Source of the DNA: [Actinomadura] parvosata subsp. kistnae
Lineage (GTDB): Bacteria > Actinomycetota > Actinomycetes > Streptosporangiales > Streptosporangiaceae
Length of the DNA stretch: 64,000 bases
Assembly: GCF_900323885.1 (NCBI RefSeq)
Contig: NZ_OOHJ01000018.1
Span: 4,265,001-4,329,000 of the forward strand
Reading direction: 5' to 3'
The notes under the pieces were generated by a model that did not search any database, was not told where the DNA came from, and saw only the letters and a list, made by a program, of their open reading frames with translations. A program made the position numbers and the translations under genes. Shown one piece after another: positions 4,723 through 60,293 of the stretch (position 1 is its first letter; each line of letters starts with the position of its first letter).

Positions 4723-4729
4723 CCACCGC

Positions 4730-4746
4730 CCGGGCGCCTCGCCCGG
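4730..4746 (+). terminator. Hairpin after the LuxR-family gene
   Basis: CCGGGCG and CGCCCGG form a 7-bp G/C stem around a 3-base loop, starting 8 bp after the stop codon. There is no U tract, which is common for terminators in high-GC actinobacteria. Confidence 0.55.
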
Positions 4747-4880
4747 AGGCCAAGGTCCCGTCCCCGGCCGCCGTTCCGTCGTGCGGGGCCGCCTTGTGAC
4801 GGGACCGCGCCCTTTGGAGCGCGTAGCGGAGTGCCCGGCCGCAGCCCTTACGGCCGTGCGCGCTCGGCTGTGGCGCGGCG

Positions 4881-4960
4881 GCACTCTCGGATGCGTGTGC
4901 TGAGGTGCGGTGGGGCGGCGGCACTCTCGGATGCGTGTGCTGAGGTGCGTGGGGCGGCGC
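4881..4960. repeat. Two copies of a 40-bp direct repeat
   Basis: The units 4881-4920 and 4921-4960 both start GCACTCTCGGATGCGTGTGC. They match except for one missing G in the second copy. They lie in the 326-bp gap (4723-5048) between the convergent luxR-type and SnoaL-like genes. Apart from this repeat and the hairpin at 4730-4746 I see nothing in that gap. Confidence 0.9.
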
Positions 4961-5048
4961 TCCGCAAGGAGCGCGGTGGGCGCCTTGCTCGCGGTGCGTG
5001 GCGAAGCGCCCGGCGGCGGGCTCGGCGAGGCCGCCGCGCAGGGGCGGG

Positions 5049-5477
5049 TCAGGGTTGGGTGAGGGTGACGGCGTCGATGGCCTTCAGGGCGCCGAGTTCG
5101 TCGGCCGTCATCCAGACGGCGCTGATGCGTCCGTCCGTGAGCGTCATGACGTCGATGACCCGCAGGTCCAGGAAGCGGCCCGTGGGTTTCAGCAACCCCG
5201 CCGAGGTGGCCATCGGGCCGACGTGCTTGCCGCGGGACCGGGCGACGAGCACGAGCTTGTCCGGCGTCTGGAAGACCTCCAGCAGCTCCTGCTGGACGTC
5301 CTCGAACATCGCCTGGACGGCCCTGGCCCTGGACACCAGCTCTGTGGCGGGCATCGGGGAGCCGTTGATCAGGACCGGATCGGTGTAGTACGCGCGGAAG
5401 GCCGCGGCCGCCGCCTCGTCGTCGGGAGGCAGGGGGTGGGTCCACAGCCGCAGCAGGGCTTCGACGTCGATGGCCAT
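5049..5477 (-). CDS. SnoaL-like / NTF2-fold protein
   Basis: A 142-residue soluble protein with the alpha+beta cone layout of the SnoaL-like ester cyclase/NTF2 superfamily: N-terminal helices (VEALLRLWTHPLPP), FRAYYTDPVLINGSPM, then strands such as KLVLVARSRGKHVGPM, a GRFLDLRVIDVMTLTDGRI segment typical of the family, and ISAVWMTADELGALKAI near the end. Members range from polyketide cyclases to catabolic hydrolases and non-catalytic binding proteins, so no reaction can be assigned. It is monocistronic and convergent with the LuxR-type gene. No promoter was recognised upstream of ATG 5477. Confidence 0.75.
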   Translation of the reverse strand: MAIDVEALLRLWTHPLPPDDEAAAAAFRAYYTDPVLINGSPMPATELVSRARAVQAMFEDVQQELLEVFQTPDKLVLVARSRGKHVGPMATSAGLLKPTGRFLDLRVIDVMTLTDGRISAVWMTADELGALKAIDAVTLTQP

Positions 5478-5595
5478 GCCGCCAGTGTGCGCCGCGGACC
5501 GCCCCGAGGCGAGACCCAGCCGGGAGCGGGCCCGGCCCGGATCTCACCCCGGGGCGGGAGCGCGTCCGGTGAGGACCGCACCCCGGGGCGGGACC

Positions 5596-6567: not shown

Positions 6568-6640
6568 GAACGCTCCTCGGTGGGTAAACGCGTCCGATAA
6601 GGCCGATCTGCGAGCCTAACTCCGCCGTACGACAAAATCG

Positions 6641-8286: not shown

Positions 8287-8321
8287 CAGATCGCCCCGGT
8301 GGGGAGAAATGCCATGAAGCT

Positions 8322-8352
8322 CTCCATATTCTCCGAGACGGTGAATATGGAG
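8322..8352. promoter_or_regulatory. Inverted repeat upstream of the ABC importer genes
   Basis: CTCCATATTC and GAATATGGAG are perfect 10-bp arms with an 11-bp spacer. The site is A/T-rich against its surroundings and lies between the stop of otnK (8406) and the importer start (8286). It is a candidate operator; a terminator for otnK is the alternative. Confidence 0.5.
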
Positions 8353-8405
8353 CCAGCGTAACGATCAGTTGTGCGAATCGGCGAGTGCCTGCCGTCGGCC
8401 CGGGT

Positions 8406-9641: not shown

Positions 9642-9691
9642 GGGTGCCCCGCCGGGCGGGTGTCGATGCTGTCGTCCTGCGAGTCGAACAT
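9638..9691 (-). CDS. Possible 17-residue leader peptide coupled to otnK
   Basis: ATG 9691 opens an 18-codon frame (MFDSQDDSIDTRPAGHP, stop) whose TGA overlaps the otnK ATG as ATGA. TAACGT lies 7 bp upstream of this ATG, the spacing of a leaderless start, and a 15-bp palindrome lies just above it. Such an overlap would let ribosomes terminating on the leader start otnK. The peptide itself matches nothing I know. The frame could be chance; the coincidence of promoter position and overlap is the support. Confidence 0.4.
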   Translation of the reverse strand: MFDSQDDSIDTRPAGHP

Positions 9692-9698
9692 GATGCCG

Positions 9699-9775: not shown

Positions 9776-11110
9776 TCAGCTCGTGATGGTCTGGTCGCGC
9801 AGCTCGAAGTAGCTGGTGTGATCGGTCTGCAAGTAGGCGTGGAAGTTCTGCGCCATGCTGCGGGCCGACTTGTCGGCGGTGACGATCGTGACGACCACGT
9901 AGTTCCTGGACGCACCCGAGAGGATCTTGCCGTAGACGTACCGGGTGAGGGCCTTGTCCTGGCGCCACTTGACAGCGTCCGACGACAGCTTCGCCAGCCG
10001 GTCGGCCGTCGTCTTGGCGGCCTGGTCCGTGGGGAAGGACAGGATGACCTGCACCGCCTTCAGGTGGCCGCTGTAGGCGGAATAGGCGAGCTGGACCGCC
10101 CTGCGGCACTTGTTCTTCGCCAGCACGCCCTGGCCGTCCACCGGGGTGCACGAGCTGTACGTCCAGCCGCCGACCTTGTCGGCCTTGAACTTGATGCCGC
10201 CCAGCGCGAAGTTCCAGTCGTCGAACTCCTGGTGCGTGATCGGCGAGCCCGGCTGCGCCTGCTTCGAGGTCGCCGGGGTGTCGTCCGGGGTCGTGGAGGG
10301 GGAGGCGGAGGGAGCCGTCGTGGGCTGGTTCGACGGGTCGGGGGTGCGCGGCGGTGCGGGGTCGGACGTGGTGGGGGTGCTGCTCGGCAGGGCGACGGTG
10401 GGCGCCGGGTCCGAGGCCTTCAGGTACGCGTACGCGGCCCAGCCGCCACCCCCCAGGAGCAGCACGGCCAGGCCGGCCACCAGGGCGATGAGCAGCACGT
10501 TGCCGCCCTTGGCCGGGGGAGCGGGCGCATACCCGGGCGGCCCATACGGCGGCTGCCCACTGTGCGGCGGCGGGCCTGCGTATGGCGGCTGGCCCCCGCG
10601 TGACTGGCCCTCGCGTGACTGGCCTCCGTGTGACTGGCCCCCGTGCGAGGGCTGGCCTGCGTGAGGCTGGCCGCCGTATGGCGGTTGCCCTCCGTGGGGC
10701 CGGCCTCCGTGCGGGAGCTGGCCTGCGTGCGGCGGTGCACCGAGTCCGTAGGCGCTCGGGGTGGCAGGCGCCGCACCGGGCGCCTGGGTGGCCGGGGCGG
10801 TGGGCGGTTGCCCGTAGCCCGGTTGCCCGTGGCCGGGCTGTCCGTAGCCCGGCTGTCCGTAGCCTGGTTGCTGCGTGCCGGGGCCGTATGGCGGGTGGCC
10901 CGGGCCGGGCTGGTGCGGGCCCTGGCTGGGTGGCGGGCCGTACCCCTGGCCCTGGCCGGGCGGTGGGCCGTAGCCCTGAGGGGGGCCGTAGGTCGGGGGA
11001 GGGCCGTAGGCGGGGGCGTGGCTTCCTTGCGGCGCTCCCTGGCCCTGTGCGCCGCCCCACGGTCCTGGCTGGTGGGGCTGGGGTTGCGGAGGCTGCGGAG
11101 GGTGTGCCAT
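9776..11110 (-). CDS. Single-pass membrane protein with Pro/Gly/Gln-rich cytoplasmic tail
   Basis: A 444-residue protein. Residues 1-200 are a low-complexity tail built from GYGPP, QPGYG and HGGQ-type repeats; residues about 204-230 form one membrane helix (VLLIALVAGLAVLLLGGGGW); residues 231-300 are a Pro/Ser/Thr-rich linker; the rest is an extracytoplasmic domain containing two cysteines (YSSCTPVDG, KNKCRRA). The layout is that of actinobacterial type II membrane proteins with disordered N-termini. I do not recognise the outer domain. The ATG at 11110 has CACAAT 6 bp upstream and no Shine-Dalgarno. The tail is encoded by short DNA repeats prone to length change. Confidence 0.75.
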   Translation of the reverse strand: MAHPPQPPQPQPHQPGPWGGAQGQGAPQGSHAPAYGPPPTYGPPQGYGPPPGQGQGYGPPPSQGPHQPGPGHPPYGPGTQQPGYGQPGYGQPGHGQPGYGQPPTAPATQAPGAAPATPSAYGLGAPPHAGQLPHGGRPHGGQPPYGGQPHAGQPSHGGQSHGGQSREGQSRGGQPPYAGPPPHSGQPPYGPPGYAPAPPAKGGNVLLIALVAGLAVLLLGGGGWAAYAYLKASDPAPTVALPSSTPTTSDPAPPRTPDPSNQPTTAPSASPSTTPDDTPATSKQAQPGSPITHQEFDDWNFALGGIKFKADKVGGWTYSSCTPVDGQGVLAKNKCRRAVQLAYSAYSGHLKAVQVILSFPTDQAAKTTADRLAKLSSDAVKWRQDKALTRYVYGKILSGASRNYVVVTIVTADKSARSMAQNFHAYLQTDHTSYFELRDQTITS

Positions 11111-11249
11111 GCCCCCATTGTGGTGCAGCCCCCCACCTTCTGCCCCAATTACCCCACCAATCGCCACACGGGACAGCCCGGCACCCCCGCGATGCTTTGG
11201 TCGTCGGCCCCCAGACCAAGGTCGGATGCCCGGCGGGGCCGGCCGTCCG

Positions 11250-11255
11250 TAGCTT
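11250..11255 (+). promoter_or_regulatory. Candidate -10 of a leaderless DUF418 transcript
   Basis: TAGCTT ends 7 bp before ATG 11263, and no Shine-Dalgarno is present between them. Confidence 0.4.
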
Positions 11256-11262
11256 CGGCGGC

Positions 11263-12444
11263 ATGACAGAAGTGCGCACGCCACACGCCGGTGGCGGCGG
11301 CCGGATCCATGAGGTGGACGTGGTGCGCGGGTTCGCGCTCGCGGGCATCCTGGTGGCCAACATCGGCTTCTTCGCCGACCCCGGCTACGCCGTGAACGGC
11401 ACCCTGCCCATGCCCGGCGGCCCGGTGGCCCTGGTCGTCACCACGCTCGTGCTGGGCAAGTTCTACATCATCTTCTCGTTCCTGTTCGGCTACTCGTTCA
11501 CGTTGCAGATGCGCTCGGCGGAGCGGGCGGGCGCGAGCGTGCGGGCCAGGACGTTGCGTCGCTGCCTGGGCCTGTTCGTGATCGGCGTCGCGCACGGGGT
11601 CCTGTTGTGGATCGGCGACATCCTCACCTTGTACGCGGTGCTCGGCCTGGTCCTGCTCGCGTTGCGCGGCATCCGGCCGAGGACGGCCGTGGTGACGGGC
11701 ACGGTCATCGTGGCCGTGCTGGCCCTGCTGTGGGCGGGGCTGGCGGCGCTGTCCACGCTGGACCCGTCCGCCGGCCAGGCCCCGCCCGCCGACCTGGCGG
11801 CGGCGGCCCGCTCGCTGGCCCTGGCCACCGGCAGCCCGCTCGACGTGCTGACCCTGCAGCTGGAGCTCTATCCGCCGCTCGTCGCGATGGTGTGGATCTT
11901 CCAGGGGCCGATGGCGCTGGCGATGTTCCTGTTCGGGCTGGCGGCGGGTAAGGCGCGGGTGCTGGAGGAGACCGGGCGGTGGTGGCACCTGGCGCGGCGT
12001 GTCCAGTGGATCGGTTTCGGTCTCGGGTTGCCGGGCGGGGTGCTGCTCGCGGTGACGTCGTCCATGCCGGGTATGGGGGAGCTGGTGGGGCAGGCGGTCA
12101 GCACGGTCACGTCGGTGCCGCTGGCCGCCGCGTACGTGGTGACCCTGCTGCGCGTGACCCGCCGCTTCCCCGCGGCGGGGCGCGCGCTGGCGCCGGCGGG
12201 GCGGGTCGCGGCCTCCAACTACGTCGGGCAGTCGGTGCTGTGCTGCCTGGTCTTCACCGGGTACGGCCTGGCGCTGGCGGGCAGGCTGTCACCGCTCGCC
12301 GTGATGGGCGTGGCCCTGGCGATCTACACGTTCCTGCTGGCGCTGAGCGCGTGGTGGCTGCGTACGCACCGATATGGCCCGGTCGAGTACGTGCTGCGCC
12401 GCGTCACGAACGGCGCTCAGGCGACGGCGGCGCAGCGGCGGTAG
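11263..12444 (+). CDS. DUF418-domain integral membrane protein
   Basis: A 393-residue membrane protein. After a short hydrophilic start comes EVDVVRGFALAGILVANIGFF, the usual first segment of the family, then LGKFYIIFSFLFGYSFTLQM, about ten membrane segments in all, and a C-terminal DUF418 region containing APAGRVAASNYVGQSVLCCLVF and RYGPVEYVLRRVT near the end. Members resemble membrane acyltransferases, but no activity is established for the family. The ATG at 11263 starts typical family sequence. It is divergent from the Pro/Gly-rich membrane protein, and its last 28 bp overlap the convergent AraC gene. Confidence 0.88.
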   Translation: MTEVRTPHAGGGGRIHEVDVVRGFALAGILVANIGFFADPGYAVNGTLPMPGGPVALVVTTLVLGKFYIIFSFLFGYSFTLQMRSAERAGASVRARTLRRCLGLFVIGVAHGVLLWIGDILTLYAVLGLVLLALRGIRPRTAVVTGTVIVAVLALLWAGLAALSTLDPSAGQAPPADLAAAARSLALATGSPLDVLTLQLELYPPLVAMVWIFQGPMALAMFLFGLAAGKARVLEETGRWWHLARRVQWIGFGLGLPGGVLLAVTSSMPGMGELVGQAVSTVTSVPLAAAYVVTLLRVTRRFPAAGRALAPAGRVAASNYVGQSVLCCLVFTGYGLALAGRLSPLAVMGVALAIYTFLLALSAWWLRTHRYGPVEYVLRRVTNGAQATAAQRR

Positions 12445-13340: not shown

Positions 13341-13348
13341 AAGTGACG

Positions 13349-14013: not shown

Positions 14014-14175
14014 CCCTATTACGTATTTATCCGGCCATGCCGCCCCTCTAGGGAAGCACGATCCTGGAGCAGGGGGTGAGCATGCGGCCGGACCTCGCCG
14101 GAGCGGCCGCGCCCAGGATCGCCGAGACCCCCGCCGAGCCGAGCGCGGTCTTGCTGCGGGGCAGCGCCCTGCTCG

Positions 14176-14267
14176 GCGGGTATCTCTCCCGGACGCACCC
14201 CGGCTGGGCGGGTATCTCTCCCGTACGCACCCCTGCCCGGTGCGCATCTCGCCGGGACGTGCCCCGG
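14176..14267. repeat. Degenerate 32-bp tandem repeat, about three copies
   Basis: GCGGGTATCTCTCCCG followed by G/TACGCACCCC occurs at 14176-14201 and 14208-14233. A diverged third copy ends at 14265. Period is 32 bp. It fills part of the 285-bp gap between the convergent FMN reductase and serine hydrolase genes. CCGGG and CCCGG (14252-14267) can form a 5-bp hairpin. Nothing else was recognised in the gap. Confidence 0.8.
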
Positions 14268-14298
14268 ACGTGCCCCTGGCTCGGCGGCGGAGGGCCCC

Positions 14299-29145: not shown

Positions 29146-30552
29146 ATGATGAAGCTGTTGGCGGCGATCCTCGCCGTGCTTTTCGCCTTACCGCTCCCCG
29201 CCGGCGCCACCGCACCGCCAGGGCTGCCGGCCGACCTGACGTCCACCGAAGTGAGCTTCCGCGGGGAGGGCGGCCTGGAGCTGCACGGCAGCGTGATCAG
29301 CCCCGCGAACGCCCGCGCCGGGCGGCCCGGAGTCGTGCTGGTGCACGGCGCGGGCACCGGCACCCCCAGGGAGAAGCTGCTGGCCGAGGCCGTGGGAGCC
29401 GCCCGGCAGGGCTTGTCCGTGCTCATCTACGACAAGCGCTCCCAGGGGTACTCGACCACCGAGCGGTCCTACCCGCAGCTCGCCGAGGACGCGCTCGGCG
29501 CCGTCGCCACCCTGCGGCGCCAGCCCGGCGTCGATCCCGCCAAGGTCGGGATCTGGGGGCTCAGCGAGGGCGGCTGGGTCGCGCCGCTCGCCGCCACCCG
29601 CCCCTCCTCGGGCATCGCCTTCGTCATCGTCGTCGGCGCCAACGCGCTCAGCCCGCTGCGGCAGCAGGCCTGGGCCGTGGCGGCCGGGCTGCGCAAGGCG
29701 GGCGCGGGCGGGTCACTGGTCGGGCGGGCCGAGCCGAACCTGTACCGGGTGATCGCCGACGGCGGCCTGTTCCCCGAGCCGTACCACGACCCGGAGCCGG
29801 TCCTCGCACGGGTGCGGCAGCCCGTGCTCGCCATCTGGGGGGTGCACGACCTGCTGACGCCGCCCAGGGAGACGCCGCCCCTCTTCGCCGATGCCCTGGA
29901 GGCGGGCGGCAACCGCCGCTACACCTTCCGCTTCTTCCCCCAGGCCGACCACGCCGCCCACCTGACCCCCGACGGCGGCGTCACCCGGCTGCCCGAGCTG
30001 GCCCCCGGCTACGCCGAGCTGGTCGGGACATGGGTGGGCGAGGCCACCTCGGGGCGGGCCCCCGTGGCCCAGGTCTCCGGGCCGGCCCCGGTGCAGGCCG
30101 TCGACTCCTTCGGGGTGCCGCCCACCGCCTGGTGGGAGTCGGCCGCCATGCAGGTCGTGGCGCTGGTGCTGCTCCTGGTGGCGTTCGGCGGCTACCCCGT
30201 CGTGGCCCTCGTCCGGCGGGTCCGGCGGCGCGACGCGGGCGTGCCGTCCGTGGCGGCGCGGGTGATCAGCGCGGGCGGGCTGGTGGCGATCCTGGGCGGG
30301 TTCGCGTACCTGTTCTACGTGATCATGACCGGCGGGAAACTGGCCGCGCCCGGCCCCATGCTGGGCGACCGGCCCGTGCTCTGGCTCGCCCTCCAGGCGG
30401 TCGCCGTCGCGACCGTCGCCGCCACCGCGGTCACGGTGGCGACGTGGCGGCGCGCGGGCACGCGGGGCGAGCGGGTGCGGCTGGGGCTGCTCATCGCGGG
30501 CGGCGCGGTGTTCGTGCCCTGGGCGCTGTACTGGGGACTGCTGCTGCCTTGA
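29146..30552 (+). CDS. Exported alpha/beta hydrolase with C-terminal membrane anchor
   Basis: A 468-residue protein: signal peptide (LLAAILAVLFALPLPAGATA), an S33/BAAT-like alpha/beta hydrolase domain about residues 35-310 (VVLVHGAGTGTPREKL; YDKRSQGYSTTERSYP; nucleophile GLSEGGWVAPL; acid in WGVHDLLTPP; His in FPQADHAAHLTP), then three or four membrane helices in the last 120 residues (VVALVLLLVAFGGYPVVALV and following). The active site would face the outside. It diverges from the ArsR-like regulator, and its promoter spacer contains one of the two TCTGCAGA sites. The 3' end lies in a 33-bp duplicated segment. The substrate is unknown. Confidence 0.87.
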   Translation: MMKLLAAILAVLFALPLPAGATAPPGLPADLTSTEVSFRGEGGLELHGSVISPANARAGRPGVVLVHGAGTGTPREKLLAEAVGAARQGLSVLIYDKRSQGYSTTERSYPQLAEDALGAVATLRRQPGVDPAKVGIWGLSEGGWVAPLAATRPSSGIAFVIVVGANALSPLRQQAWAVAAGLRKAGAGGSLVGRAEPNLYRVIADGGLFPEPYHDPEPVLARVRQPVLAIWGVHDLLTPPRETPPLFADALEAGGNRRYTFRFFPQADHAAHLTPDGGVTRLPELAPGYAELVGTWVGEATSGRAPVAQVSGPAPVQAVDSFGVPPTAWWESAAMQVVALVLLLVAFGGYPVVALVRRVRRRDAGVPSVAARVISAGGLVAILGGFAYLFYVIMTGGKLAAPGPMLGDRPVLWLALQAVAVATVAATAVTVATWRRAGTRGERVRLGLLIAGGAVFVPWALYWGLLLP

Positions 30553-30609
30553 GCGTGGGTGGGGGTCGCGGGGCGGCTGCCTCAGGCGTGGGTGAGGGCG
30601 CCGGGGCGG
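30544..30609. repeat. 33-bp tandem duplication across two convergent gene ends
   Basis: Copies 30544-30576 and 30577-30609 match at about 26 of 33 positions (CTGCCT...GCGTGGGTG...CGGGGCGG). The first holds the hydrolase stop codon (30550-30552), the second the minus-strand stop of the AraC gene (30582-30584). Confidence 0.8.
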
Positions 30610-31547
30610 GTGCGGGAGCGGAACGTGCGGCGGTAGGTGTCCGGGGGCACGCCGACCGTGCGGTTGAAGTTGCGGCGCAACGTCGTGGCGGTGCCCATGC
30701 CGGTGGCCGAGGCGATGGCGTCGACGCTGTCGTCCGTGGTCTCCAGCAGCTGCTGGGCGTGGCGGATCCGCTGGATCAGCAGCCACTGGAGCGGGGTGGT
30801 GCCGGTGACCGAGCGGAAGTGGCGGCCCAGGTTGCGGGCGCTCATCCGCGCCTGGCGGGCCAGGTCCTCCACGGTCAGCGGCTGGTCCAGCCGCTCCATC
30901 ACCCACGGGAACAGCTCCGCCAGCGGATGGTTGTCGGGGGCGGGCACCGGCGTCGTGACGAACTGGGACTGGCCGCCGTCCCGGTGCGGCGGCACCACCA
31001 GGCGGCGGGCGACCGCGTTGGTGACCGAGGAGCCGTGGTCGAGGCGGACCAGGTGCAGGCACAGGTCCATGGCCGCGGCCTTGCCCGCCGAGGTCAGCAC
31101 GTCGCCGTTGTCCACGTACAGGACGTCCGGGTCCACCTCCACCTCGGGGAAGCGGGTGGCCAGCTCCCTCGTGTGCGCCCAGTGCGTGGTGGCGCGCTTG
31201 CCGTCCAGCAGGCCCGCCTCGGCCAGCACGAACGCGCCCGTGCACAGGGACGCCACGCGGGCGCCCGCCTCGTGGGCCGCGCGCACCGCCGCGACCAGCT
31301 CGGCCGGCGGGCTCACGTCCACGTCGGCCCAGCCGGGGACGATCACCGTGTCGGCCTCTCGCAGGTGGTCGAGGCCGTGGTCGGGCTCCAGCAGGAACCG
31401 GCCGGCCCGCACCGCGCCCGGCCCGCAGACCACGAGGTCGTACCAGGGGTCGGCCAGGTGCGTCAGGTCGGCCCCGAAGACCTCGTACGCCAGGGAGAGC
31501 TCGAAATGCAGCATTCCGTCGGTGACGGCCAGCGCGACTGTGTGCAT
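30582..31547 (-). CDS. GlxA-like AraC regulator with DJ-1/PfpI domain
   Basis: A 321-residue protein. Residues 1-185 form a DJ-1/PfpI-like domain (MHTVALAVTDGMLHFELSLAYEVF; DTVIVPGW; VASLCTGAFVLAEAGLLDGKRATTHW, with cysteine at the nucleophile-elbow position). Residues 215-312 carry the AraC double helix-turn-helix (VEDLARQARMSARNLGRHF; DSVDAIASATGMGTATTLRRNF). Many such proteins control the divergent metabolic gene, here the saccharopine-dehydrogenase-like enzyme at 31658. TACAAT lies 7 bp before ATG 31547, a leaderless start, flanked by an 8-bp inverted repeat. A paralogue of similar design is at 32766-33719. Confidence 0.92.
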   Translation of the reverse strand: MHTVALAVTDGMLHFELSLAYEVFGADLTHLADPWYDLVVCGPGAVRAGRFLLEPDHGLDHLREADTVIVPGWADVDVSPPAELVAAVRAAHEAGARVASLCTGAFVLAEAGLLDGKRATTHWAHTRELATRFPEVEVDPDVLYVDNGDVLTSAGKAAAMDLCLHLVRLDHGSSVTNAVARRLVVPPHRDGGQSQFVTTPVPAPDNHPLAELFPWVMERLDQPLTVEDLARQARMSARNLGRHFRSVTGTTPLQWLLIQRIRHAQQLLETTDDSVDAIASATGMGTATTLRRNFNRTVGVPPDTYRRTFRSRTRPGALTHA

Positions 31548-31580
31548 GTCCGGAATTGTATGGGTGATGGCGTTCCGGAC
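31548..31580. promoter_or_regulatory. Leaderless promoter and inverted repeat before the GlxA-like gene
   Basis: Minus-strand TACAAT (31560-31555) ends 7 bp before ATG 31547. GTCCGGAA (31548-31555) and TTCCGGAC (31573-31580) are perfect 8-bp arms with a 17-bp spacer and bracket the -10, as an autoregulatory operator could. Confidence 0.5.
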
Positions 31581-31657
31581 ACTCGTGCGGGGGATGCGCC
31601 GTTGCCAGGATGGTCACGTCAGATCGCGGCAGATCAGGTGAGCACGGGGAGAAACCC

Positions 31658-32686: not shown

Positions 32687-32725
32687 GAGCGGGCCGGGGA
32701 CGGGCGGCTCGGCGGCGTGACCCCC

Positions 32726-32779
32726 GTTCAGGTGGCGGCCCCCCGTTCAGGTGGCGGCCCCCCGCTCAGGTGGCGGCCT
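32726..32779. repeat. 19-bp tandem repeat at convergent gene ends
   Basis: Units GTTCAGGTGGCGGCCCCCC at 32726-32744 and 32745-32763, and a third, partial unit from 32764. The third unit contains the minus-strand stop codon of the AraC gene (32766-32768), so the gene's last codons and stop are present three times. Confidence 0.85.
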
Positions 32780-40274: not shown

Positions 40275-40306
40275 GTTGGGGGTTACCTCTCCTCATGTAC
40301 GGGGGT

Positions 40307-40398
40307 TCAGCGTTGTGCCGGAGGGGCCAGGGTCGAGCCCTCGACCAGTGCGGGGTCAGCGTTGTGCCGGGGGTGCCAGGGTCGAGCCCTCGACCAGC
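40307..40398. repeat. 49-bp duplication of the lacI 3' end
   Basis: Starting at 40307 and again at 40356, 42 bp (TCAGCGTTGTGCCGG...CTCGACCAG) recur with only two differences. The second copy is the true lacI end with its stop (40356-40358); the first repeats the last 13 codons and the stop downstream. Each copy contains GGTCGAG-CC-CTCGACC (40331-40346, 40380-40395), a hairpin-forming palindrome. Confidence 0.92.
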
Positions 40399-42744: not shown

Positions 42745-42754
42745 CCCTTTCAGG

Positions 42755-42793
42755 GGGACGACTCCTAAAGGGACGACTCCTGAAGGGACGGAG
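42755..42793. repeat. 15-bp tandem repeat covering the arsR stop codon
   Basis: GGGACGACTCCTAAA (42755-42769), GGGACGACTCCTGAA (42770-42784), then GGGACGG. The minus-strand arsR stop TAG lies at 42767-42765, so the last codons recur after the stop. Confidence 0.85.
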
Positions 42794-43177: not shown

Positions 43178-43942
43178 GTGACCACCGCGTCCACCAGCCG
43201 GCTGCGGGGCCAGGCCGTGATCGTGACCGGCGCGGGCTCCGGCATCGGCAGGGCCGCCGCGCTAGCCTTCGCCCGCGCCGGAGCACACGTGCTCGCCGTC
43301 GGCCGCCGCGCCGACGCCCTGCGCCAGACCGCCGACCGGCATCCCGGCATCGCCACCCTGCCCGCCGACATCACCGCCGACGGTGCCGCGCAGGAGGTGA
43401 TCGACGCGGCGGCCGGGCGCTGGGGCCGCCTGGACGTGCTGGTCAACAACGCCGGCGCCACCACCGTCATGCCGCTCGCCGACACCGACGCCCGGCGCGT
43501 CGCCGACCTGCTCGCACTCAACGTCACCGCCCCCAGCCTGCTCGCCCGCGCCGCGCTCCCGCACCTGCGCGCCGCCCGCGGCGCGATCGTCAACATCTCC
43601 AGCACGTACGGCCACCGCCCGCTGCCCGGCGCCGCCCACTACGCCGCCTCCAAGGCCGCCATCGAGCAGCTCACCCGCAGCTGGGCGCTGGAGCTGGCCG
43701 CCGACGGCATCCGCGTCAACGCCCTGGCCCCCGGCCCCACCGAGAGCGAGGCCCTGACCGCCGCCGGCCTGCCGGACGCCGTCGTCGAGCAGATCAAGCG
43801 GGACGAGACCGCCGCCATCCCCCTCGGCCGCCGCGGCACCCCCGAGGAGGTGGCCGCCTGGATCGTCCACCTCGCCGACCCCGCCGCCACCTGGATCACC
43901 GGCCAGGTCCTCACGGTCGACGGCGGCCTGGAGCTCACCTGA
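43178..43942 (+). CDS. Short-chain dehydrogenase/reductase
   Basis: A 254-residue classical SDR: cofactor motif VTGAGSGIGRAAAL (TGxxxGIG) near residue 17, VLVNNAGATTV near 87 (NNAG), catalytic serine in NISSTYGH, YxxxK as YAASKAAIEQL, and ALAPGPTESEAL. All active-site residues are present. An arginine pair after the cofactor loop (GRRADAL) suggests NADP(H). GTG 43178 is preceded by AGGAGGGG. It diverges from an ArsR-type regulator with a strong palindrome between them. Substrate unknown. Its 3' end lies in a 43-bp repeat array. Confidence 0.93.
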   Translation: MTTASTSRLRGQAVIVTGAGSGIGRAAALAFARAGAHVLAVGRRADALRQTADRHPGIATLPADITADGAAQEVIDAAAGRWGRLDVLVNNAGATTVMPLADTDARRVADLLALNVTAPSLLARAALPHLRAARGAIVNISSTYGHRPLPGAAHYAASKAAIEQLTRSWALELAADGIRVNALAPGPTESEALTAAGLPDAVVEQIKRDETAAIPLGRRGTPEEVAAWIVHLADPAATWITGQVLTVDGGLELT

Positions 43943-44075
43943 GCTGGAGGCGGTCACGAGGCGTGGGAGCTCACCGGGCCTGAGACCCGGGGGCGGTCGC
44001 GAGGCGTGGCGGCTCACCCGGCCCGAGGCCCGGGGGCTGTTACGAGGCGCGGTGGCTCACCCGGCCCCAGGCGCG
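43930..44075. repeat. 43-bp tandem array bridging SDR and dehalogenase ends
   Basis: The segment GGCTCACC or AGCTCACC recurs at about 43933, 43969, 44012 and 44055 (spacing 36, 43, 43), with CCCGGGGGC and GCGAGGCGTGG-like parts between. The array contains both the SDR stop (43940-43942) and the minus-strand stop of the next gene (44057-44059). CCGGG/CCCGG pairs inside the unit can fold. Confidence 0.85.
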
Positions 44076-45041: not shown

Positions 45042-45785
45042 ATGTCACGGTGGCGGTACCTCCGGTGGTGGGCGGCGGCGTTCGCGGCCGGCCTGCTGAG
45101 CTTCCTGTCCTTGTGGTTGCCGGGGTGGTTCGAGGGCGACGGCGCGGTGGGCTGCGCGGGCTACGGACCCCTTCCCTCGGGCCTGGCCGCGCTGTGGTCC
45201 GAGGTGGAGACGATCTGGCTGGACCTGCGGCAGCACGTGGAGACCACCTACGGCTGGTTCCTGCCGAACGGGCTCCCTATGGCCGCCGTCCTGGTCTCGG
45301 GCGCGGCGGCGAGCCGCCCCGGACGCCGGCTCGCCACCCTGGCCGGGCTGGTCGCGGCCCTGCTCGTGACGGCGGTCGCGCTGCACTGGGCGCTCATGGC
45401 GTTCTCGTACTTCCTCCTGGCCGACTGCACGGGCTGGGAGGCGAGGCTGCTGCCGTGGATGGGCTGGCGCCTCCTCATGGCCGCCGGGTACGCCTGCACG
45501 ACCGTGCTGCTCCTCGCCGGCGTGCACGCGCGCCGGGCGGCGCCCGCGCAGGCCCGGCTCCAGGCCGGGCCGGGGCCTGACGGCGGGCCGGGGCGGGGGC
45601 CTGACGGCGGGCCGGGGCGGGGGCCTGACGGCGGGCCGGGCCGAGGGTCTGACGGCGGGCTGGGCCTGACGGCGGGCTGGGCCGGGGGCCTGACGGCGGG
45701 CTGGGCCGGGGGCCTGACGGCGGGCTGGGCCGAGGGTCTGACGGCGGGCCGGGCCGGGGGCTTGACGGCGGGCCGAGGCCGGGGG
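45042..45785 (+). CDS. Small membrane protein running into a 24-bp repeat array without a stop
   Basis: ATG 45042 opens a protein with three or four membrane helices (YLRWWAAAFAAGLLSFLSLWLPGW; LPMAAVLVSGAAAS; LAGLVAALLVTAVALHWALMAF; MGWRLLMAAGYACTTVLLLAGVHA). From about 45560 the frame enters the repeat array and becomes DGGPGRGP- and then LTAGWAGG-type repeats, and it stays open through the whole antisense of the next gene to 46793. The TGA triplet present in every repeat is never in frame. The coordinates given stop at the edge of ilvA because the rest is clearly antisense. The membrane part is not a family I know. Confidence 0.55.
45568..45780. repeat. 24-bp tandem array, about nine copies
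   Basis: Units of the kind GGGCCGGGGGCCTGACGGCG. The TGA in each falls at 45578, 45602, 45626, 45650, 45667, 45691, 45715, 45739 and 45763: spacing 24 bp, with one 17-bp step. The array lies between the convergent membrane-protein and ilvA genes. Confidence 0.92.
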
Positions 45786-46778
45786 TCAGGGGGCGGGCTG
45801 CGCCGGGGGGGCGGCCGCGCACAGGTCGGCGAAGCGGCGGGCGTCGATGTTGCCGCCGGAGACGATCACGCCCACGCGCCGCGGCACCCGCTCCACTCGC
45901 CCCGCCAGCAGGGCGGCGAGCGGGGTCGCGCCGCTGGGCTCGATGACGATCTTCAGGCGTTCGAAGGCCAGCCGCATCGCCGCGCGGATGTCGTCGTCGG
46001 AGACGAGGGCGACGTCGTCCACCAGGTGCTTGTTGATGGAGAACGTCAGCTCGCCCGGGATGTCGGCGGCCTGGCCGTCGGCGATCGTGCGCGGGACCGG
46101 GATGGACACGCGCGCGCCCGCCGCCAGCGACCGCTTGGTGTCGTCGCCCGCCTCCGGCTCGACGCCGATCACGCGGATGCCGGGCAGCAGGCCCTTGGCG
46201 GCCGTGGCGCTGCCCGCGATCAGCCCGCCGCCGCCGATGGGCACCAGCAGCGCGTCGAGGTCGCCGACCTCCTCGATCAGCTCCAGCGCGGCGGTGCCCT
46301 GGCCGGCGATGACGTGCGGGTGCTCGTACGGGGGAATCAGCGCGAGGCCGCGCTCGGCGGCCAGCGCCTCGCCGATGGCGACCCGGTCGCCGGTGTAGCG
46401 GTCGTAGGTGACGACCTCGGCGCCGTAGCCGGCGGTGGCCTCCCTCTTGGAGCGGGGGGTGTCCTCGGGCATGAGGATCACCGCCGTGCTGCCCAGCTCG
46501 CGCGCGGCCAGCGCCACGGCCTGGGCGTGGTTGCCCGAGGAGTACGCGGCGATGCCACGGGCCCGCTGCTGCGGCGTGAGCCGGGAGACGGCGTTGTAGG
46601 CGCCGCGGAACTTGAACGCGCCGACGCGCTGGAAGTTCTCGCACTTCAGGAACACCTCGGCGCCGACGAGGGCGTCGAGGGTGCGCGAGCGCAGGACGGG
46701 GGTGCGGTGGGCGACGCCCTTCAGCCGGGCGGCGGCGTCGTGGACGTCATCGAGGGTGACCGGAAGGGCGTTCGTCAT
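45786..46778 (-). CDS. ilvA: Threonine/serine ammonia-lyase (PLP-dependent)
   Basis: A 330-residue catabolic-type enzyme without a regulatory ACT domain. Landmarks: FLKCENFQRVGAFKFRGA, in which the last lysine before FRGA binds PLP, SSGNHAQAVALAA (cofactor-carboxylate loop), PEDTPRSKREAT, and GGGGLIAGSA (phosphate loop). It deaminates threonine to 2-oxobutanoate or serine to pyruvate; 2-aminoacrylate or the crotonate imine is released, which RidA (gene two upstream) hydrolyses. The ATG at 46778 overlaps the dauR stop as ATGA. The length and operon context suggest the tdcB-like catabolic role rather than isoleucine synthesis. Confidence 0.93.
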   Translation of the reverse strand: MTNALPVTLDDVHDAAARLKGVAHRTPVLRSRTLDALVGAEVFLKCENFQRVGAFKFRGAYNAVSRLTPQQRARGIAAYSSGNHAQAVALAARELGSTAVILMPEDTPRSKREATAGYGAEVVTYDRYTGDRVAIGEALAAERGLALIPPYEHPHVIAGQGTAALELIEEVGDLDALLVPIGGGGLIAGSATAAKGLLPGIRVIGVEPEAGDDTKRSLAAGARVSIPVPRTIADGQAADIPGELTFSINKHLVDDVALVSDDDIRAAMRLAFERLKIVIEPSGATPLAALLAGRVERVPRRVGVIVSGGNIDARRFADLCAAAPPAQPAP

Positions 46779-47440
46779 GCTTGCTGCTCCTGAGAGGTGT
46801 CGGATCCGCTGCGGGCCTGGGAGAGGTAGCTGTAGGCGGAGGCGCGGGAGATGCCGAGCCGGGCCGCGACCTGGGGGACCGCCCGGCGCACGGCGAACAC
46901 GCCGCGCTCGTCGAGGGTCCTGAACAGCTCCAGCCGTTCCTCGCGGCCGAGCTCCGCCCAGGGCTTGCCCTGGTCGAGCTGGTGGGCGTCGACGATGGCG
47001 GCCACCACCGAGTCGATGTCGTCGCCGAACGTCGTGGTGGGCGCGCCGGTGGGGGCGGCGAGTCCGGCCAGCTCCCCGATCAGCGCGTGCGCCTGGGTGA
47101 CGGCGGTGATGTCGAGGTTGACGCACAGGGCGCCGAACATGGTGCCCGCGCTGTCGCGCAGGACCATGGTGGAGGACTTGACGAGCTTGCCGTCCTTGGT
47201 GCGGGTGACGTAGTTGAGCTGGTCGCTCGCCTGGTCGCCGCGGGCGAGCAGGCCCATGCCGATCTCGCTCATCGAGCCGCCGACGCTGCGGCCGGTGACG
47301 GTGCCGGCGATGGCGACCACGGAGCTCTCCGGGCGGCGGAAGTCGTGCACCACCACTTCGCAGAACGAGCCGAGCGTCGCCACGATGCCGTCCACGACGG
47401 GGGTGAGCGCGGCGAGGATGGCGTCCTGCTCACGCTTCAC
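46775..47440 (-). CDS. dauR: YheO/DauR-type regulator with PAS-like and HTH domains
   Basis: A 221-residue protein. Residues 5-125 form a YheO-like PAS sensor (SFCEVVVHDFRRPESSVVAIAG; DKLVKSSTMVLRD-like GKLVKSSTMVLRDSAG; GALCVNLDIT). Residues 160-215 are an HTH_22 domain (RLELFRTLDERGVFAVRRAVPQVAARLGISRASAYSYLSQA). The best-known member, DauR, represses D-arginine catabolism. Here it is joined to ridA (11-bp overlap) and ilvA (4-bp overlap), so it probably controls amino-acid deamination. The promoter palindrome at 47833-47861 is its likely operator. The symbol is by family resemblance. Confidence 0.85.
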   Translation of the reverse strand: MKREQDAILAALTPVVDGIVATLGSFCEVVVHDFRRPESSVVAIAGTVTGRSVGGSMSEIGMGLLARGDQASDQLNYVTRTKDGKLVKSSTMVLRDSAGTMFGALCVNLDITAVTQAHALIGELAGLAAPTGAPTTTFGDDIDSVVAAIVDAHQLDQGKPWAELGREERLELFRTLDERGVFAVRRAVPQVAARLGISRASAYSYLSQARSGSDTSQEQQA

Positions 47441-48862: not shown

Positions 48863-49154
48863 ATGACACTCACCCTCACCGCCCAGGAGGCCGCCCGCTG
48901 GGCGGACCGCGCCGGGCTGCCGCTCGCCGAGGAGCGCCACGCGGCCGTGGCCGCCACCGCCGACCACATCCGCGCCGTCGTCAGCACCCTGCGCGAGCTC
49001 GACCTGGGCGAGACCGCACCCGGCGCCCTGCCCGCCGCCCTGCCCGCCGCCCTGCCCGCCGCCCTGCCCGCCGCCCTGCCCGCCGCCCTGCCCGCCGTCC
49101 TGCCCGCCGGATGGCGGCACGCCGCGACCGCGCCCGCCGGAAGGGAGCGCGCCG

Positions 49155-49168
<14 letters not shown>
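48863..49168 (+). CDS. AtzG/GatC-like small subunit with PAAL repeats
   Basis: A 101-residue protein upstream of an amidase. Residues 1-50 (LTLTAQEAARWADRAGLPLAEERHAAVAATADHIRAVVSTLRELDL) resemble the AtzG/DUF4089 small subunit that assists AtzE-type amidases, as GatC does for GatA. The second half is a run of about six PAAL units encoded by a 12-bp DNA repeat (GCCCTGCCCGCC), so the length is probably variable between strains. Normal AtzG proteins are shorter and lack this tail. It overlaps the amidase start by 14 bp, supporting joint function. The Shine-Dalgarno is GAAGG. Confidence 0.7.
49020..49105. repeat. 12-bp tandem repeat encoding PAAL units
   Basis: About six or seven perfect or near-perfect units of GCCCTGCCCGCC within the 3' half of the AtzG-like gene. 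It is in frame, so unit gain or loss keeps the reading frame. Confidence 0.92.
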
Positions 49169-56774: not shown

Positions 56775-56777
56775 GGC

Positions 56778-58019: not shown

Positions 58020-58121
58020 TGAGAAACTCCCGATCGTCACGTTCCTGATTGGATCGGGAGGGACGCTAGAGACGGTGACTGTTCATTCGACAGCCCGATC
58101 TCTGGCCGAAACCCGCCACGT

Positions 58122-59030
58122 TCACAGTGCCGTCGGCAGGGGCCCGCCGTTCCAGGCGATGGCGTCGCCGAAGGCGGCGACGAGGTCCACGTCGGCGCCG
58201 GCGGCTTCGGCGTAGGCCCGGTGCAGGTTCAGCACCAGCCGCTCGGCGTCCGCCCACGCGGCGAACTCGCCCAGGTCGGCCTCCCGCGCCGCGTCCAGCG
58301 GCCCGAGCCCCTTCTCGCGGCCCTTGCGCGCCACGTCGAGCACGAACCGGTAGTACCGCTCGTGGGCGGCCAGCACCTCGGGCAGGTCGGCGGCCGTGGC
58401 GAGCGGCCCGTGCCCCGGCACGACGTGCTCGGGCTCGAAACCGGCCAGCCAGTCCAGCGACCGCAGCGCCCCCTCCAGCGACCCCATCAGCACCATCGGG
58501 GTGAGCCCGTTGAACAGCAGGTCGCCGGCGAACAACACCCGCTCGCCGGGCAGCCAGGCCACCACGTCGCCCGGCGTGTGCGCGGGGTGGCCGGGGTGCC
58601 GCAGCTCGATCCGCCGCCCGCCGAGGTGCACGGTCAGCTCGTCGCGGAACACCGCGGACGGCGGCCGGCGCGTCACGTTCCCCCAGTCGGGCACGGGCGT
58701 CCACACGGGCGGGCACCCGTCGATGTACGGGTCGGCCAGCAGCGCCGCCCGCGTGGCCGCGTGCCCGAAGATCATGGCCTGCTCGGGCAGCAGGCTGTTG
58801 CCGTACGCGTGGTCGCCGTGCTGGTGGGTGTTGACCGCCATCCGCACGGGCGCCCCGCCGGTCGCCGCCGCCAGCGCGTCGAGGAAGCGGCGGGTACGCC
58901 GCTCGCTCGCGCACGTGTCCACCACGAACACGCCGTCGTCACCGGCGACGGCCCCGGCGTTGTTCACCCACCACGTGCCGTCCGGCTGGACCCAGGCGAA
59001 GACCCCTGGCACGATCTGACGCAGCTCCAT
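58122..59030 (-). CDS. Metallo-beta-lactamase-fold hydrolase (SoxH/quinoprotein-relay-like)
   Basis: A 302-residue MBL protein: MAVNTHQHGDHAYGNSLLPE (HxHxDH as HQHGDH), ELRHPGHPAHTPGDVVAWLPGERVLFAGDLLFNGLTPM with further metal ligands, and VVPGHGPLATAADL. This branch includes SoxH-like and quinoprotein-relay proteins of unsettled function. No signal peptide is seen from ATG 59030, whose Shine-Dalgarno is GGAGAGGTGG. An upstream in-frame ATG at 59093 is unlikely. It lies upstream of livK on the same strand, 102 bp apart; whether it belongs to that operon is unclear. Confidence 0.87.
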   Translation of the reverse strand: MELRQIVPGVFAWVQPDGTWWVNNAGAVAGDDGVFVVDTCASERRTRRFLDALAAATGGAPVRMAVNTHQHGDHAYGNSLLPEQAMIFGHAATRAALLADPYIDGCPPVWTPVPDWGNVTRRPPSAVFRDELTVHLGGRRIELRHPGHPAHTPGDVVAWLPGERVLFAGDLLFNGLTPMVLMGSLEGALRSLDWLAGFEPEHVVPGHGPLATAADLPEVLAAHERYYRFVLDVARKGREKGLGPLDAAREADLGEFAAWADAERLVLNLHRAYAEAAGADVDLVAAFGDAIAWNGGPLPTAL

Positions 59031-59287
59031 CGTCCACCTCTCCTGTCCGGATGTCTGCCGGCACATCATCCCGGTGGGCGGTGTCCACTTCACAGTCCGG
59101 TCCCTGACCGGCGGCGATCAGAAAGCGGCGCTGCCGCCGGTCGGCCACTGGACAGAAAACGATCTGGTGAATGAGCAATGGCCGCCACCAGAGTACGACA
59201 GCGGGTCCCGGCCGGCTGCCGTCACTCCGAGCGCGCGGCGGCGGGCCGGAACCCGATCGCACCCGTTACTCATCGATGGAGACCCTC

Positions 59288-60208
59288 ATGTTCGGAACCG
59301 CCCGCCTGCGTGCCGCCGGTCGCGCGACCGTGACCGCGACCGCCCTGCTCGGCGCCTGCGCCGCGCTCGTCACCGCGGGCCAGGGGACCGCCACGGCGAC
59401 CGCGAGCAGCGCGTCCGCCGTGCGTTACGTCGCCCTCGGCGACTCCTACGCCTCCGGGTTCGGCATCACGCCCGTGGAGAGCAAGGAGTGCGGCCGGGGC
59501 AAGCTGAACTACCCGGCCGTCATCCGCGCCGCGGCCGACCCCGCCGCCTACAAGAACGTCGCCTGCGCGGGCGCCACCACCCGCGCCATCTGGAACTCCT
59601 ACGAGGGCCAGGAGCCGCAGATCAAGGCGCTCAAGCCCGACACGAACCTGGTGACGGTGTCCATCGGCGGCAACGACATCGGTTTCAGCGAGATCGTCGT
59701 GAACTGCGTCCTGCTCGGCCAGCGGCAGCCCACCGGCGACCCCTGCCGCCAGCACTACAAGAAGTCCGGCGAGGACCGGATCCTGGCCACCCTCGACTCC
59801 GTCAAGTCCCGCATCGGTGACGTCGTGATCGACGCCAGGCGGCGCAGCCCCAACGCCGCCATCGCGCTGGTCGGCTACCCGTCGCTGCTGCCCGACAGCG
59901 GCAAGAGCTGCCGCTCCGCCCAGGTGCCGTTCGCCGACGGGGACTTCGCGTACCTGCGCAACATCACCGTGCGCCTCAACAAGGCGATCGCCGAGCAGGC
60001 CCAGCGCAGCGGCGCCATCTACGTCGACACCTACGGGCCGTCCATCGGGCACGACATGTGCGCGAGCCCGAGCGAGCGCTGGATCGAGCCGCTGCGCAAC
60101 TCCGGCTCCAGCGAGATCTCCCCGGCCGCGGCGCACCCGAACACCAAGGGCATCATCAGCCTCGGCGGGGTGATCTCCCAGAAGCTGTCCCGGAGCGCCG
60201 GCCGCTGA
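59288..60208 (+). CDS. Secreted SGNH/GDSL hydrolase (lipase/esterase)
   Basis: A 306-residue secreted enzyme. A signal peptide of about 40 residues (ATVTATALLGACAALVTAGQG) precedes the SGNH blocks: block I YVALGDSYASGFG (nucleophile Ser), block II/III TVSIGGNDIGFSEIV (Gly and Asn of the oxyanion hole), block V ISPAAAHPNTKG with Asp replaced by Ala-Ala before His; the histidine is present. Six cysteines in the mature part (KECG, NVACAG, VNCV, DPCR, KSCR, DMCAS) would form the three disulfides usual in Streptomyces-type lipases of this family. ATG 59288 has GGAGA 7 bp upstream. It is convergent with the regulator pseudogene. Confidence 0.9.
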   Translation: MFGTARLRAAGRATVTATALLGACAALVTAGQGTATATASSASAVRYVALGDSYASGFGITPVESKECGRGKLNYPAVIRAAADPAAYKNVACAGATTRAIWNSYEGQEPQIKALKPDTNLVTVSIGGNDIGFSEIVVNCVLLGQRQPTGDPCRQHYKKSGEDRILATLDSVKSRIGDVVIDARRRSPNAAIALVGYPSLLPDSGKSCRSAQVPFADGDFAYLRNITVRLNKAIAEQAQRSGAIYVDTYGPSIGHDMCASPSERWIEPLRNSGSSEISPAAAHPNTKGIISLGGVISQKLSRSAGR

Positions 60209-60214
60209 CACGCC

Positions 60215-60293
60215 GGCAAGAGACGCCCCTGGGCAAGAGAACACCGGCAAGAGACCAGAAGCCGGCCCGGGCGCGCTCAGCTCCCGGGCGCGC
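60215..60293. repeat. Short direct repeats between SGNH gene and regulator pseudogene
   Basis: GGCAAGAGA occurs at 60215, 60232 and 60246. CCCGGGCGCGC occurs at 60266-60276 and 60283-60293, 17 bp apart, bracketing the minus-strand stop (60277-60279). The two CCCGGG blocks can also pair as a 6-bp hairpin. Confidence 0.75.

What the first reader, a model, noticed from the sequence alone, without database searches (positions are those of the whole stretch)
4723..60293. Tandem duplications recur at gene 3' ends, especially between convergent genes
Eight of the nine convergent gaps of 20 bp or more carry short tandem repeats: 4881-4960 (40 bp), 14176-14267 (32), 30544-30609 (33), 32726-32779 (19), 42755-42793 (15), 43930-44075 (43), 45568-45780 (24), 60215-60293 (17). 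The lacI end adds a codirectional case (40307-40398, 49 bp). Periods and sequences differ, so this is not one repeat family. In six of the nine, a stop codon lies inside a unit. The only exception of at least 20 bp is 679-707. Convergent transcription or terminator hairpins may promote slippage, or the arrays may serve as termination or insulation zones. I know of no description of this pattern.
Basis: seen in the sequence. Interest (0 to 1): 0.75.

Follow-up and report, generated by a model that had tools for sequence, protein, structure and literature searches.

The report
Tandem repeats gather between convergent genes
In this soil actinomycete (probably genus Nonomuraea) and its kin, short head-to-tail DNA duplications collect in the free space behind gene ends, above all where two genes point at each other, most likely because duplications do no harm there rather than because they have a job.

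Summary
There 8 of 9 convergent gaps of at least 20 bp carry tandem repeats beyond shuffled sequence. In 60 evenly spaced 20-kb stretches of the same 13.6-Mb genome, repeats at p<=0.005 occur in 28 of 72 convergent, 40 of 295 codirectional and 9 of 146 divergent gaps of 20-400 bp; length-stratified odds ratios are 3.9 and 9.9. The bias recurs in pooled samples of five other Nonomuraea genomes and of named actinomycete loci; one more distant genome is inconclusive.

The arrays share no family (0 matching pairs among 84). At 73 orthologous gene ends 9 carry an array, none like ours (19 gaps untestable). Periods are multiples of 3 in 203 of 229 coding arrays but 8 of 40 convergent ones. Units are not hairpins.

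Best reading: short duplications arise everywhere; selection removes them from coding DNA, promoters and starts; convergent gaps are the least constrained DNA. A two-fold convergent excess over matched codirectional 3' ends (p=0.008 pooled, but p=0.08 without one small data set) keeps a mutational or functional contribution open.

The parts
4870..4959 (.). Tandem array, period 40, 2.3 copies, in convergent gap 4723-5048 (LuxR/AAA regulator | SnoaL-like)
   Evidence: TRF score 164; p=0.001; flanking genes
14167..14267 (.). Tandem array, period 32, 3.2 copies, in convergent gap 14014-14298 (FMN reductase | protein of Pfam family Beta-lactamase)
   Evidence: TRF score 118; p=0.001
30543..30613 (.). 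Tandem array, period 33, 2.2 copies, covering both stop codons of convergent gap 30553-30581 (hydrolase | AraC/DJ-1 regulator)
   Evidence: TRF score 91; p=0.001
32721..32778 (.). Tandem array, period 19, 3.1 copies, in convergent gap 32687-32765; includes the TGA of the minus-strand AraC/DJ-1 gene and its last codons
   Evidence: TRF score 109; p=0.001; this array not found at 22 orthologous saccharopine-dehydrogenase-like ends or 7 orthologous AraC ends (some gaps too short to test)
42755..42790 (.). Tandem array, period 15, 2.4 copies, over the 3' end and TAG of the minus-strand ArsR-type gene, convergent gap 42745-42764
   Evidence: TRF score 65; p=0.001
43949..44067 (.). Tandem array, period 43, 2.8 copies, filling convergent gap 43943-44056 (SDR | alpha/beta hydrolase)
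   Evidence: TRF score 168; p=0.001; this array not found at 11 SDR or 10 hydrolase orthologous ends (some gaps too short to test)
45563..45809 (.). Tandem array, period 24 with higher-order periods 41 and 89, about 10 copies, between a small membrane-protein gene and the PALP-enzyme gene
   Evidence: TRF scores 310 and 329; p=0.001; this array not found at 23 orthologous PALP ends (some gaps too short to test)
60215..60293 (.). Weak repeats (CCGGCAAGAGAC-like) in convergent gap 60209-60276 (GDSL lipase | protein with no Pfam match)
   Evidence: p=0.005-0.006; no TRF row at score 30 or more; sequence
40303..40397 (.). Tandem array, period 49, 1.9 copies, codirectional: over the 3' end and stop of the lacI-type gene (minus strand)
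   Evidence: TRF score 169; p=0.001
680..706 (.).
   Evidence: p=0.55 with 20-bp flanks, 0.20 with 40-bp flanks

Best explanation
The pattern is the footprint of a mutation-selection filter. Short tandem duplications (about 10-60 bp, by slippage between short direct repeats or blunt misjoining) arise across this GC-rich genome. They survive in coding DNA almost only if they keep the frame, hardly survive in promoter and start-codon regions, and accumulate behind stop codons. A convergent gap has stops on both sides and no promoter, so it is the least constrained intergenic DNA and fills with short-lived private arrays that also lengthen the gap. A copy that spans a stop codon is harmless, because translation ends at the first stop. 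SHOWN here: the position bias, its independence of gap length, the frame rule in genes, the onset at stop codons, absence of a sequence family, and species-privacy at five gene ends. INFERRED: that differing survival rather than differing mutation produces most of the bias, that privacy holds generally, and the slippage mechanism.
For: Share of bases in TRF arrays (score>=50), own genome with window: genes 1.59%, divergent gaps 1.47%, codirectional 5.8%, convergent 21.2%; along convergent ends 1.0-2.1% in the coding bins up to 30 bp before the stop, 8.1% in the last 30 bp, 20-25% in the 0-100 bp after it; low on both sides of divergent starts. Five relatives pooled: 1.69, 3.04, 4.84, 14.16%. 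Convergent stays highest at TRF thresholds 40-100 and two levels of flank-gene confidence in four data sets; block bootstrap over 60 stretches: convergent minus codirectional 95% CI 0.12-0.38. Period a multiple of 3: 203 of 229 coding arrays, 8 of 40 convergent (own); 186 of 202 and 11 of 25 (relatives). Graded by constraint at matched positions: convergent 3' ends 37/218, codirectional 3' ends 17/208, codirectional 5' ends 7/208, divergent 5' ends 10/350. Coding DNA next to convergent junctions has no excess (22/1170 v 57/1855). Orthologous gene ends in the genus: 9 of 73 carry arrays, each with another unit than ours. 0 matching pairs among 84 gap arrays. Of 137 young two-copy duplications in all compartments, 38 extend 3 bp or more past one period (null 8.6%; convergent 9 of 22), as slippage at short direct repeats predicts.
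Against: Convergent 3' ends keep a two-fold pooled excess over codirectional 3' ends at least 160 bp from the next start (37/218 v 17/208, p=0.008); by data set it is 13/68 v 7/63, 8/78 v 4/48, 9/56 v 5/72 and 7/16 v 1/25, only the last significant alone, stratified OR 2.4, p=0.005. In mid-size gaps the contrast is larger: 60 bp after the stop in convergent gaps of 60-119 bp 11/24 and 9/20, in codirectional gaps of 60-219 bp 15/170 and 7/148 (own, relatives), which may reflect arrays creating the gap length or a convergent effect. Codirectional 3' v 5' ends is only p=0.056. Codirectional arrays have periods divisible by 3 in 20 of 35 (own) and 14 of 25 (relatives), and convergent ones in relatives in 11 of 25, so some 'gap' arrays may be coding DNA missed by the caller. 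The effect is weaker in Streptomyces (raw 30/154, 36/355, 21/165), slight in named Streptosporangiales loci (2/14, 4/56, 1/18) and not significant in G040 (2/13, 4/49, 0/22). The neutral duplication rate was not measured. The measure favours longer arrays because TRF needs a minimum score.
Confidence: 0.68

Rival explanations
1. Mutational hot spot: converging RNA polymerases trap positive supercoils and stall, and the resulting breaks or fork pauses create tandem duplications at convergent junctions.
For: Two-fold pooled excess at convergent over matched codirectional 3' ends (37/218 v 17/208, p=0.008), and a larger contrast in mid-size gaps. Positive supercoils accumulate at gene 3' ends and between convergent genes in E. 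coli and yeast (passages of PMC8360656 read).
Against: Arrays inside the last 150 or 300 bp of coding are not more frequent in convergent genes (22/1170 v 57/1855; 41/1170 v 97/1855), although that paper says torsion appears able to diffuse over a few kb. The excess starts at about the stop codon. Codirectional gaps grade from start to stop as constraint predicts. Without the small 'other' set the matched excess is p=0.08.
Confidence: 0.14
2. Function: the arrays act as transcription-termination or insulation zones between convergent genes.
For: Location behind stops. Arrays and strong folding tend to exclude each other at convergent ends (23/140 with an array, 80/282 without, p=0.008), as if one could stand in for the other.
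Against: Units do not fold better than shuffles (mean z -0.11, 4 of 61 below -2). No shared sequence. At five genes' ends the arrays are private and 64 of 73 relatives' ends show none (19 of them untestable). In every data set outside the window most convergent gaps of 20-400 bp have no array at p<=0.005. The exclusion fits equally a constraint on gaps that hold a real terminator, and it does not hold upstream of divergent starts, where the trend is opposite (about 19 of 94 ends with an array fold strongly, 41 of 450 without; worked back from the percentages).
Confidence: 0.1
3. Artefact of gene calling, GC-rich composition or assembly.
For: Gene calls come from a caller written here, which missed at least one gene in the window (45042); the genome is in 36 contigs; GC-rich arrays are prone to assembly error (general knowledge).
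Against: Dinucleotide shuffles keep composition, and matched coding windows reach p<=0.005 in only 6 of 240. At score 20 or more, 29 of 31 called stops agree with the record's annotation on a 40-kb Streptomyces stretch, with the caller retrained on Streptomyces loci. The bias holds in pooled independent assemblies; in G010, a single contig, it is 2/11, 3/53, 2/23, too few to test alone.
Confidence: 0.03

Closest known systems
REP/BIME elements (repetitive extragenic palindromes)
   Same: Same placement rule: mostly between convergent and unidirectional genes, downstream of coding regions (abstract and passages of PMC3733652 read).
   Different: REPs are palindromic members of dispersed sequence families; these arrays are not hairpins and share no sequence.
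GGGAATC heptamer arrays of Xanthomonas
   Same: Tandem repeats in intergenic DNA, on average 28 nt from the ORF on the 5' side and 160 nt from the downstream ORF; 16% between convergent and 7-8% between divergent ORFs (passages of PMC4692102 read).
   Different: One 7-nt G-quadruplex-forming unit; here longer units, each different.
Tandem repeats of Borg elements
   Same: Recently formed, independently arising arrays; coding periods divisible by three, intergenic ones mostly not; some start within gene ends (passages of PMC9879509 read).
   Different: Borg arrays are perfect and A-enriched and sit on archaeal extrachromosomal elements; convergent placement was not among the passages seen.
Bacterial minisatellite / MIRU-VNTR loci (recalled)
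   Same: Short intergenic tandem repeats, some overlapping stop codons of flanking genes.
   Different: MIRUs form one family and are known for strain polymorphism, which could not be tested here.
Repeats in yeast convergent 3' UTRs
   Same: Tandem repeats at 3' UTRs, often between convergent genes, rearranged between species (passages of PMC4393290 read).
   Different: AT-rich and tied to polyadenylation signals; the flexibility peaks are often conserved across species.

Membership tests
REP/BIME | Palindromic, hairpin-forming unit | tested here: not met
   61 convergent-gap units of period 14-80 (own and relatives): mean fold z -0.11, 4 below -2
REP/BIME | Dispersed family of similar sequences | tested here: not met
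   0 matching pairs among 84 gap arrays at E<=1e-4; 3 of 84 hit anywhere else in the 1.26-Mb sample at E<=1e-3
REP/BIME | Located between convergent and codirectional genes rather than divergent ones | tested here: met
   33/80, 43/310 and 11/157 gaps at p<=0.005
REP/BIME | RAYT transposase in the genome (recalled) | not tested
   No search made
Minisatellite / VNTR | Head-to-tail repeats of about 10-60 bp | tested here: met
   40 convergent arrays of the own genome: median period 26, 2.3 copies
Minisatellite / VNTR | Copy number varies between strains of one species | not testable with these tools
   Genomes are held one per species; between species the checked arrays are private
Xanthomonas-type heptamer array | One 7-nt G4-forming unit | tested here: not met
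   The eight TRF arrays reported in the window have units of 15-49 bp, all different; G4 folding not tested
Intrinsic or tandem terminator | GC-rich hairpin after the stop | tested here: not met
   Strong folding is rarer at convergent ends with arrays (23/140) than without (80/282)
Intrinsic or tandem terminator | Transcript 3' ends map to it | not testable with these tools
   No Term-seq data available

The most novel reading that the evidence does not exclude
Repetition itself, not sequence, is the functional feature: at convergent junctions that lack a hairpin terminator, actinomycetes use any tandem array as a buffer that stalls or absorbs the two converging polymerases. Arrays are therefore re-invented independently at such junctions and rare where a hairpin already does the job. 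The residual convergent excess and the hairpin-array exclusion would be its traces.
Probability: 0.09. Interest if true: 0.75.

Novelty: new variant of a known kind. Interest (0 to 1): 0.45.

Why it matters
About a fifth of the sampled convergent intergenic DNA of this genome lies in tandem arrays (21.2%), which were private wherever checked. If the filter reading holds, convergent gaps are a natural record of short-duplication mutagenesis under weak selection: a baseline for studies of terminators, repeats and small RNAs, a source of strain markers, and a way in which gene 3' ends change or lose stop codons. If the residual convergent excess proved mutational, it would make the old question of transcription-linked duplication testable.

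Tried and rejected
Rejected: (a) one dispersed repeat family; (b) hairpin-driven slippage; (c) stop codons as special targets: convergent 30 of 65 against 37.8 by random placement, codirectional 19 of 60 against 14.6; (d) a regional hot spot reaching into genes; (e) gap length as the cause: the bias survives stratification and subtraction of the extra copies (convergent/codirectional odds ratios 5.1, 5.3, 2.2, 8.3 in the four data sets).

Led nowhere: synteny around the window. Apart from our own genome, no listed match spans both flanking genes (lists capped). One search stopped on a formatting error and was redone; one search stopped on an indexing error and was redone; two searches were earlier forms of the gene caller. 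Literature: 10 searches were answered; none listed a paper that, by title and abstract start, treats convergent enrichment of unrelated tandem duplications in bacteria, but subscription journals and preprints are mostly missing from that library.

Rows dropped: gaps under 20 or over 400 bp (shuffle test) or over 600 bp (TRF coverage); gaps holding a weak gene call; flank genes under score 20. TRF arrays outside those gaps: 99 in gene-free stretches and 18 at gene edges (own), 33 and 4 (relatives). G040 was left out of the relatives pool and reported apart. The window was left out of the own set (first test). The 62 loci labelled Streptomyces include one 'Actinobacteria bacterium'. Hairpin classes were capped at 150 ends. 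In one search orthologues under 70% identity, or not matched to 85% of the query's length, were dropped. Of the relatives' loci, two PALP ends ran off the locus and one saccharopine-dehydrogenase-like locus had no hit; these are not in the 73. Of the 73, 19 gaps were too short or cut to be tested and count as carrying no array; one PALP end (L245) had no stop for 1323 bp past the match.
Full report
WHAT WAS CHECKED. The window lies at G000:C22:4265001-4329000 of a 13.56-Mb, 36-contig genome. The best named matches to a protein of the window include Nonomuraea species, so I take the genus to be Nonomuraea; no tool named it. TRF and a separate period score against 1000 dinucleotide shuffles confirm repeats in eight of the nine convergent gaps of at least 20 bp and at the lacI 3' end; 680-706 has none. 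Two details need correction. The 60215-60293 case is weak. The TGA at 45578 is not in frame with the membrane-protein gene that starts at 45042, whose frame has no stop until 46793.

GENOME-WIDE TEST. I wrote a codon-usage gene caller (final form). Retrained on Streptomyces loci and tried on 40 kb of an annotated Streptomyces record, 29 of its 31 calls at score 20 or more had an annotated stop, 20 of those 29 a start within 30 nt, and 12 of the 41 annotated genes typed in were not called. I applied it to the window plus 60 evenly spaced 20-kb stretches (1.264 Mb). For gaps of 20-400 bp, repeats at p<=0.005 (none of 200 shuffles as good) occur in 33 of 80 convergent, 43 of 310 codirectional and 11 of 157 divergent gaps, and in 6 of 240 length-matched coding windows; without the window, 28 of 72, 40 of 295 and 9 of 146. 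Stratified by length, convergent against codirectional gives odds ratio 3.9 (p=8.5e-6) and against divergent 9.9 (p=1.1e-8). Removing the extra copies from gap length leaves 5.1 and 10.7. Convergent gaps exceed the others in each of the four length bins.

OTHER GENOMES. Five more Nonomuraea genomes pooled: 21/65, 25/259, 15/136 (odds ratios 5.0 and 4.5). Streptomyces among 80 named loci: 30/154, 36/355, 21/165 (3.7 and 3.8). Other named actinomycetes: 7/26, 7/87, 2/41, of which the Streptosporangiales loci alone give 2/14, 4/56, 1/18. One distant member of the class (G040): 2/13, 4/49, 0/22, not significant. The named loci all surround one homologous gene, so they are not independent draws of the genome.

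ANATOMY. In the own genome TRF arrays (score>=50) cover 1.59% of genes, 1.47% of divergent, 5.8% of codirectional and 21.2% of convergent gap DNA. Coverage is 1.0-2.1% in the coding bins up to 30 bp before convergent stops, 8.1% in the last 30 bp, and 20-25% in the 100 bp after. Upstream of starts in divergent gaps it stays at 0.8-2.0%. In the five relatives the figures are 1.69, 3.04, 4.84 and 14.16%. Convergent stays highest for TRF thresholds 40-100 in four data sets. Coding arrays keep the frame (203 of 229), convergent ones do not (8 of 40); in relatives 186 of 202 and 11 of 25. Codirectional arrays are in between (20 of 35 and 14 of 25), so some of them may be coding DNA that the caller missed. 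No two of 84 gap arrays match each other. Stop codons are inside arrays no more often than random placement gives.

EVOLUTION. At orthologous 3' ends of five window genes (PALP enzyme, saccharopine-dehydrogenase-like, AraC/DJ-1, SDR, hydrolase), nearly all within the genus, 9 of 73 relatives' ends carry an array at p<=0.005 with a TRF row; 19 of the 73 gaps were too short or cut to test. None of the nine has our period and unit (units compared by reading the printed consensus). Five lie in convergent and four in codirectional gaps. Listed DNA matches to relatives stop at or near the array edges. So at these ends the arrays are independent and recent. Of 137 young two-copy duplications in all compartments, 38 run 3 bp or more past one period, where blunt joining predicts about 9%, as slippage at short direct repeats would leave; the measure is biased toward longer arrays.

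MECHANISM. Three readings were weighed. (1) Selection filter. Matched 60-bp windows order as expected from constraint: convergent 3' 37/218, codirectional 3' 17/208, codirectional 5' 7/208, divergent 5' 10/350. (2) Mutational hot spot. Convergent transcription traps positive supercoils in E. coli and yeast (passages of PMC8360656), and the two-fold step from 17/208 to 37/218 (p=0.008) could reflect it; it leans on the small 'other' set (7/16 v 1/25), is p=0.08 without that set and p=0.005 when stratified over all four. Mid-size gaps show a larger contrast (convergent 60-119 bp 11/24 and 9/20, codirectional 60-219 bp 15/170 and 7/148). Against it, coding DNA next to convergent junctions shows no excess (22/1170 v 57/1855). 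(3) Function as terminator or insulator. Strong folding after the stop is less common at convergent ends with arrays (23/140) than without (80/282), units are not hairpins, and the checked arrays are not conserved; upstream of divergent starts the folding trend is opposite. I judge the filter the main cause (0.68), with a convergence-specific part possible.

WHAT IS KNOWN. REP elements follow the same placement rule but are palindromic families (PMC3733652, abstract and passages). Xanthomonas heptamer arrays sit close to the ORF on their 5' side and twice as often between convergent as divergent ORFs (PMC4692102, passages). Borg repeats form independently, keep the frame in genes and can start in gene ends (PMC9879509, passages). 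Yeast convergent 3' UTRs hold tandem repeats (PMC4393290, passages). I found no report of the present rule for unrelated duplications in bacteria in ten searches (listed under tried and rejected). The finding is a quantified placement rule, not found in those searches, for an ordinary kind of repeat; hence 'new variant of a known kind'.

LIMITS. About 9% of the genome was sampled; gene starts are less certain than stops, and the caller missed at least one gene in the window; no strain series, transcript ends or mutation rates were available.

Noticed in passing
45042-46793: A small membrane-protein gene lacks an in-frame stop: homologues in 5 of 6 fetched relatives end at or soon after the matching point, while here the frame runs through the 24-bp array and on antisense through the PALP-enzyme gene. 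The sixth homologue matches only over its first 74 residues. An assembly indel is not excluded.
   Followed up: partly
9776-11284: The minus-strand frame holds a Gly/Pro/Gln-rich N-terminal region whose in-frame arrays (periods 15, 33, 18, 30) probably explain the repeats at 10589-11016; the caller had ended this gene at 10498.
   Followed up: partly
42755-42790: Two copies of the unit carry CAG and TAG at the same place in the ArsR-type gene frame: a repeat copy supplies the stop codon, as if one stop had mutated and a duplicate took over (read by eye).
   Followed up: no
49019-49109: A 12-bp unit repeated 7.6 times at 97% match inside the small called gene 48863-49168.
   Followed up: no
30582-33719: Two AraC/DJ-1 regulator genes about 68% alike in DNA over the matched part (30582-31547 and 32766-33719) stand close together, each ending in a convergent array with a different unit.
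   Followed up: no
L298 (NZ_LT559118.1): The plasmid collection holds an 11.85-Mb Nonomuraea gerenzanensis record labelled a plasmid; its size suggests the chromosome.
   Followed up: no
convergent gaps, own genome, relatives and Streptomyces loci: Strong folding after stop codons is about 1.7 times as common at convergent ends without arrays (80 of 282 against 23 of 140), so some convergent pairs may share hairpin terminators.
   Followed up: partly
L245: One relative's PALP orthologue also shows no in-frame stop for 1323 bp past the match; not looked into.
   Followed up: no
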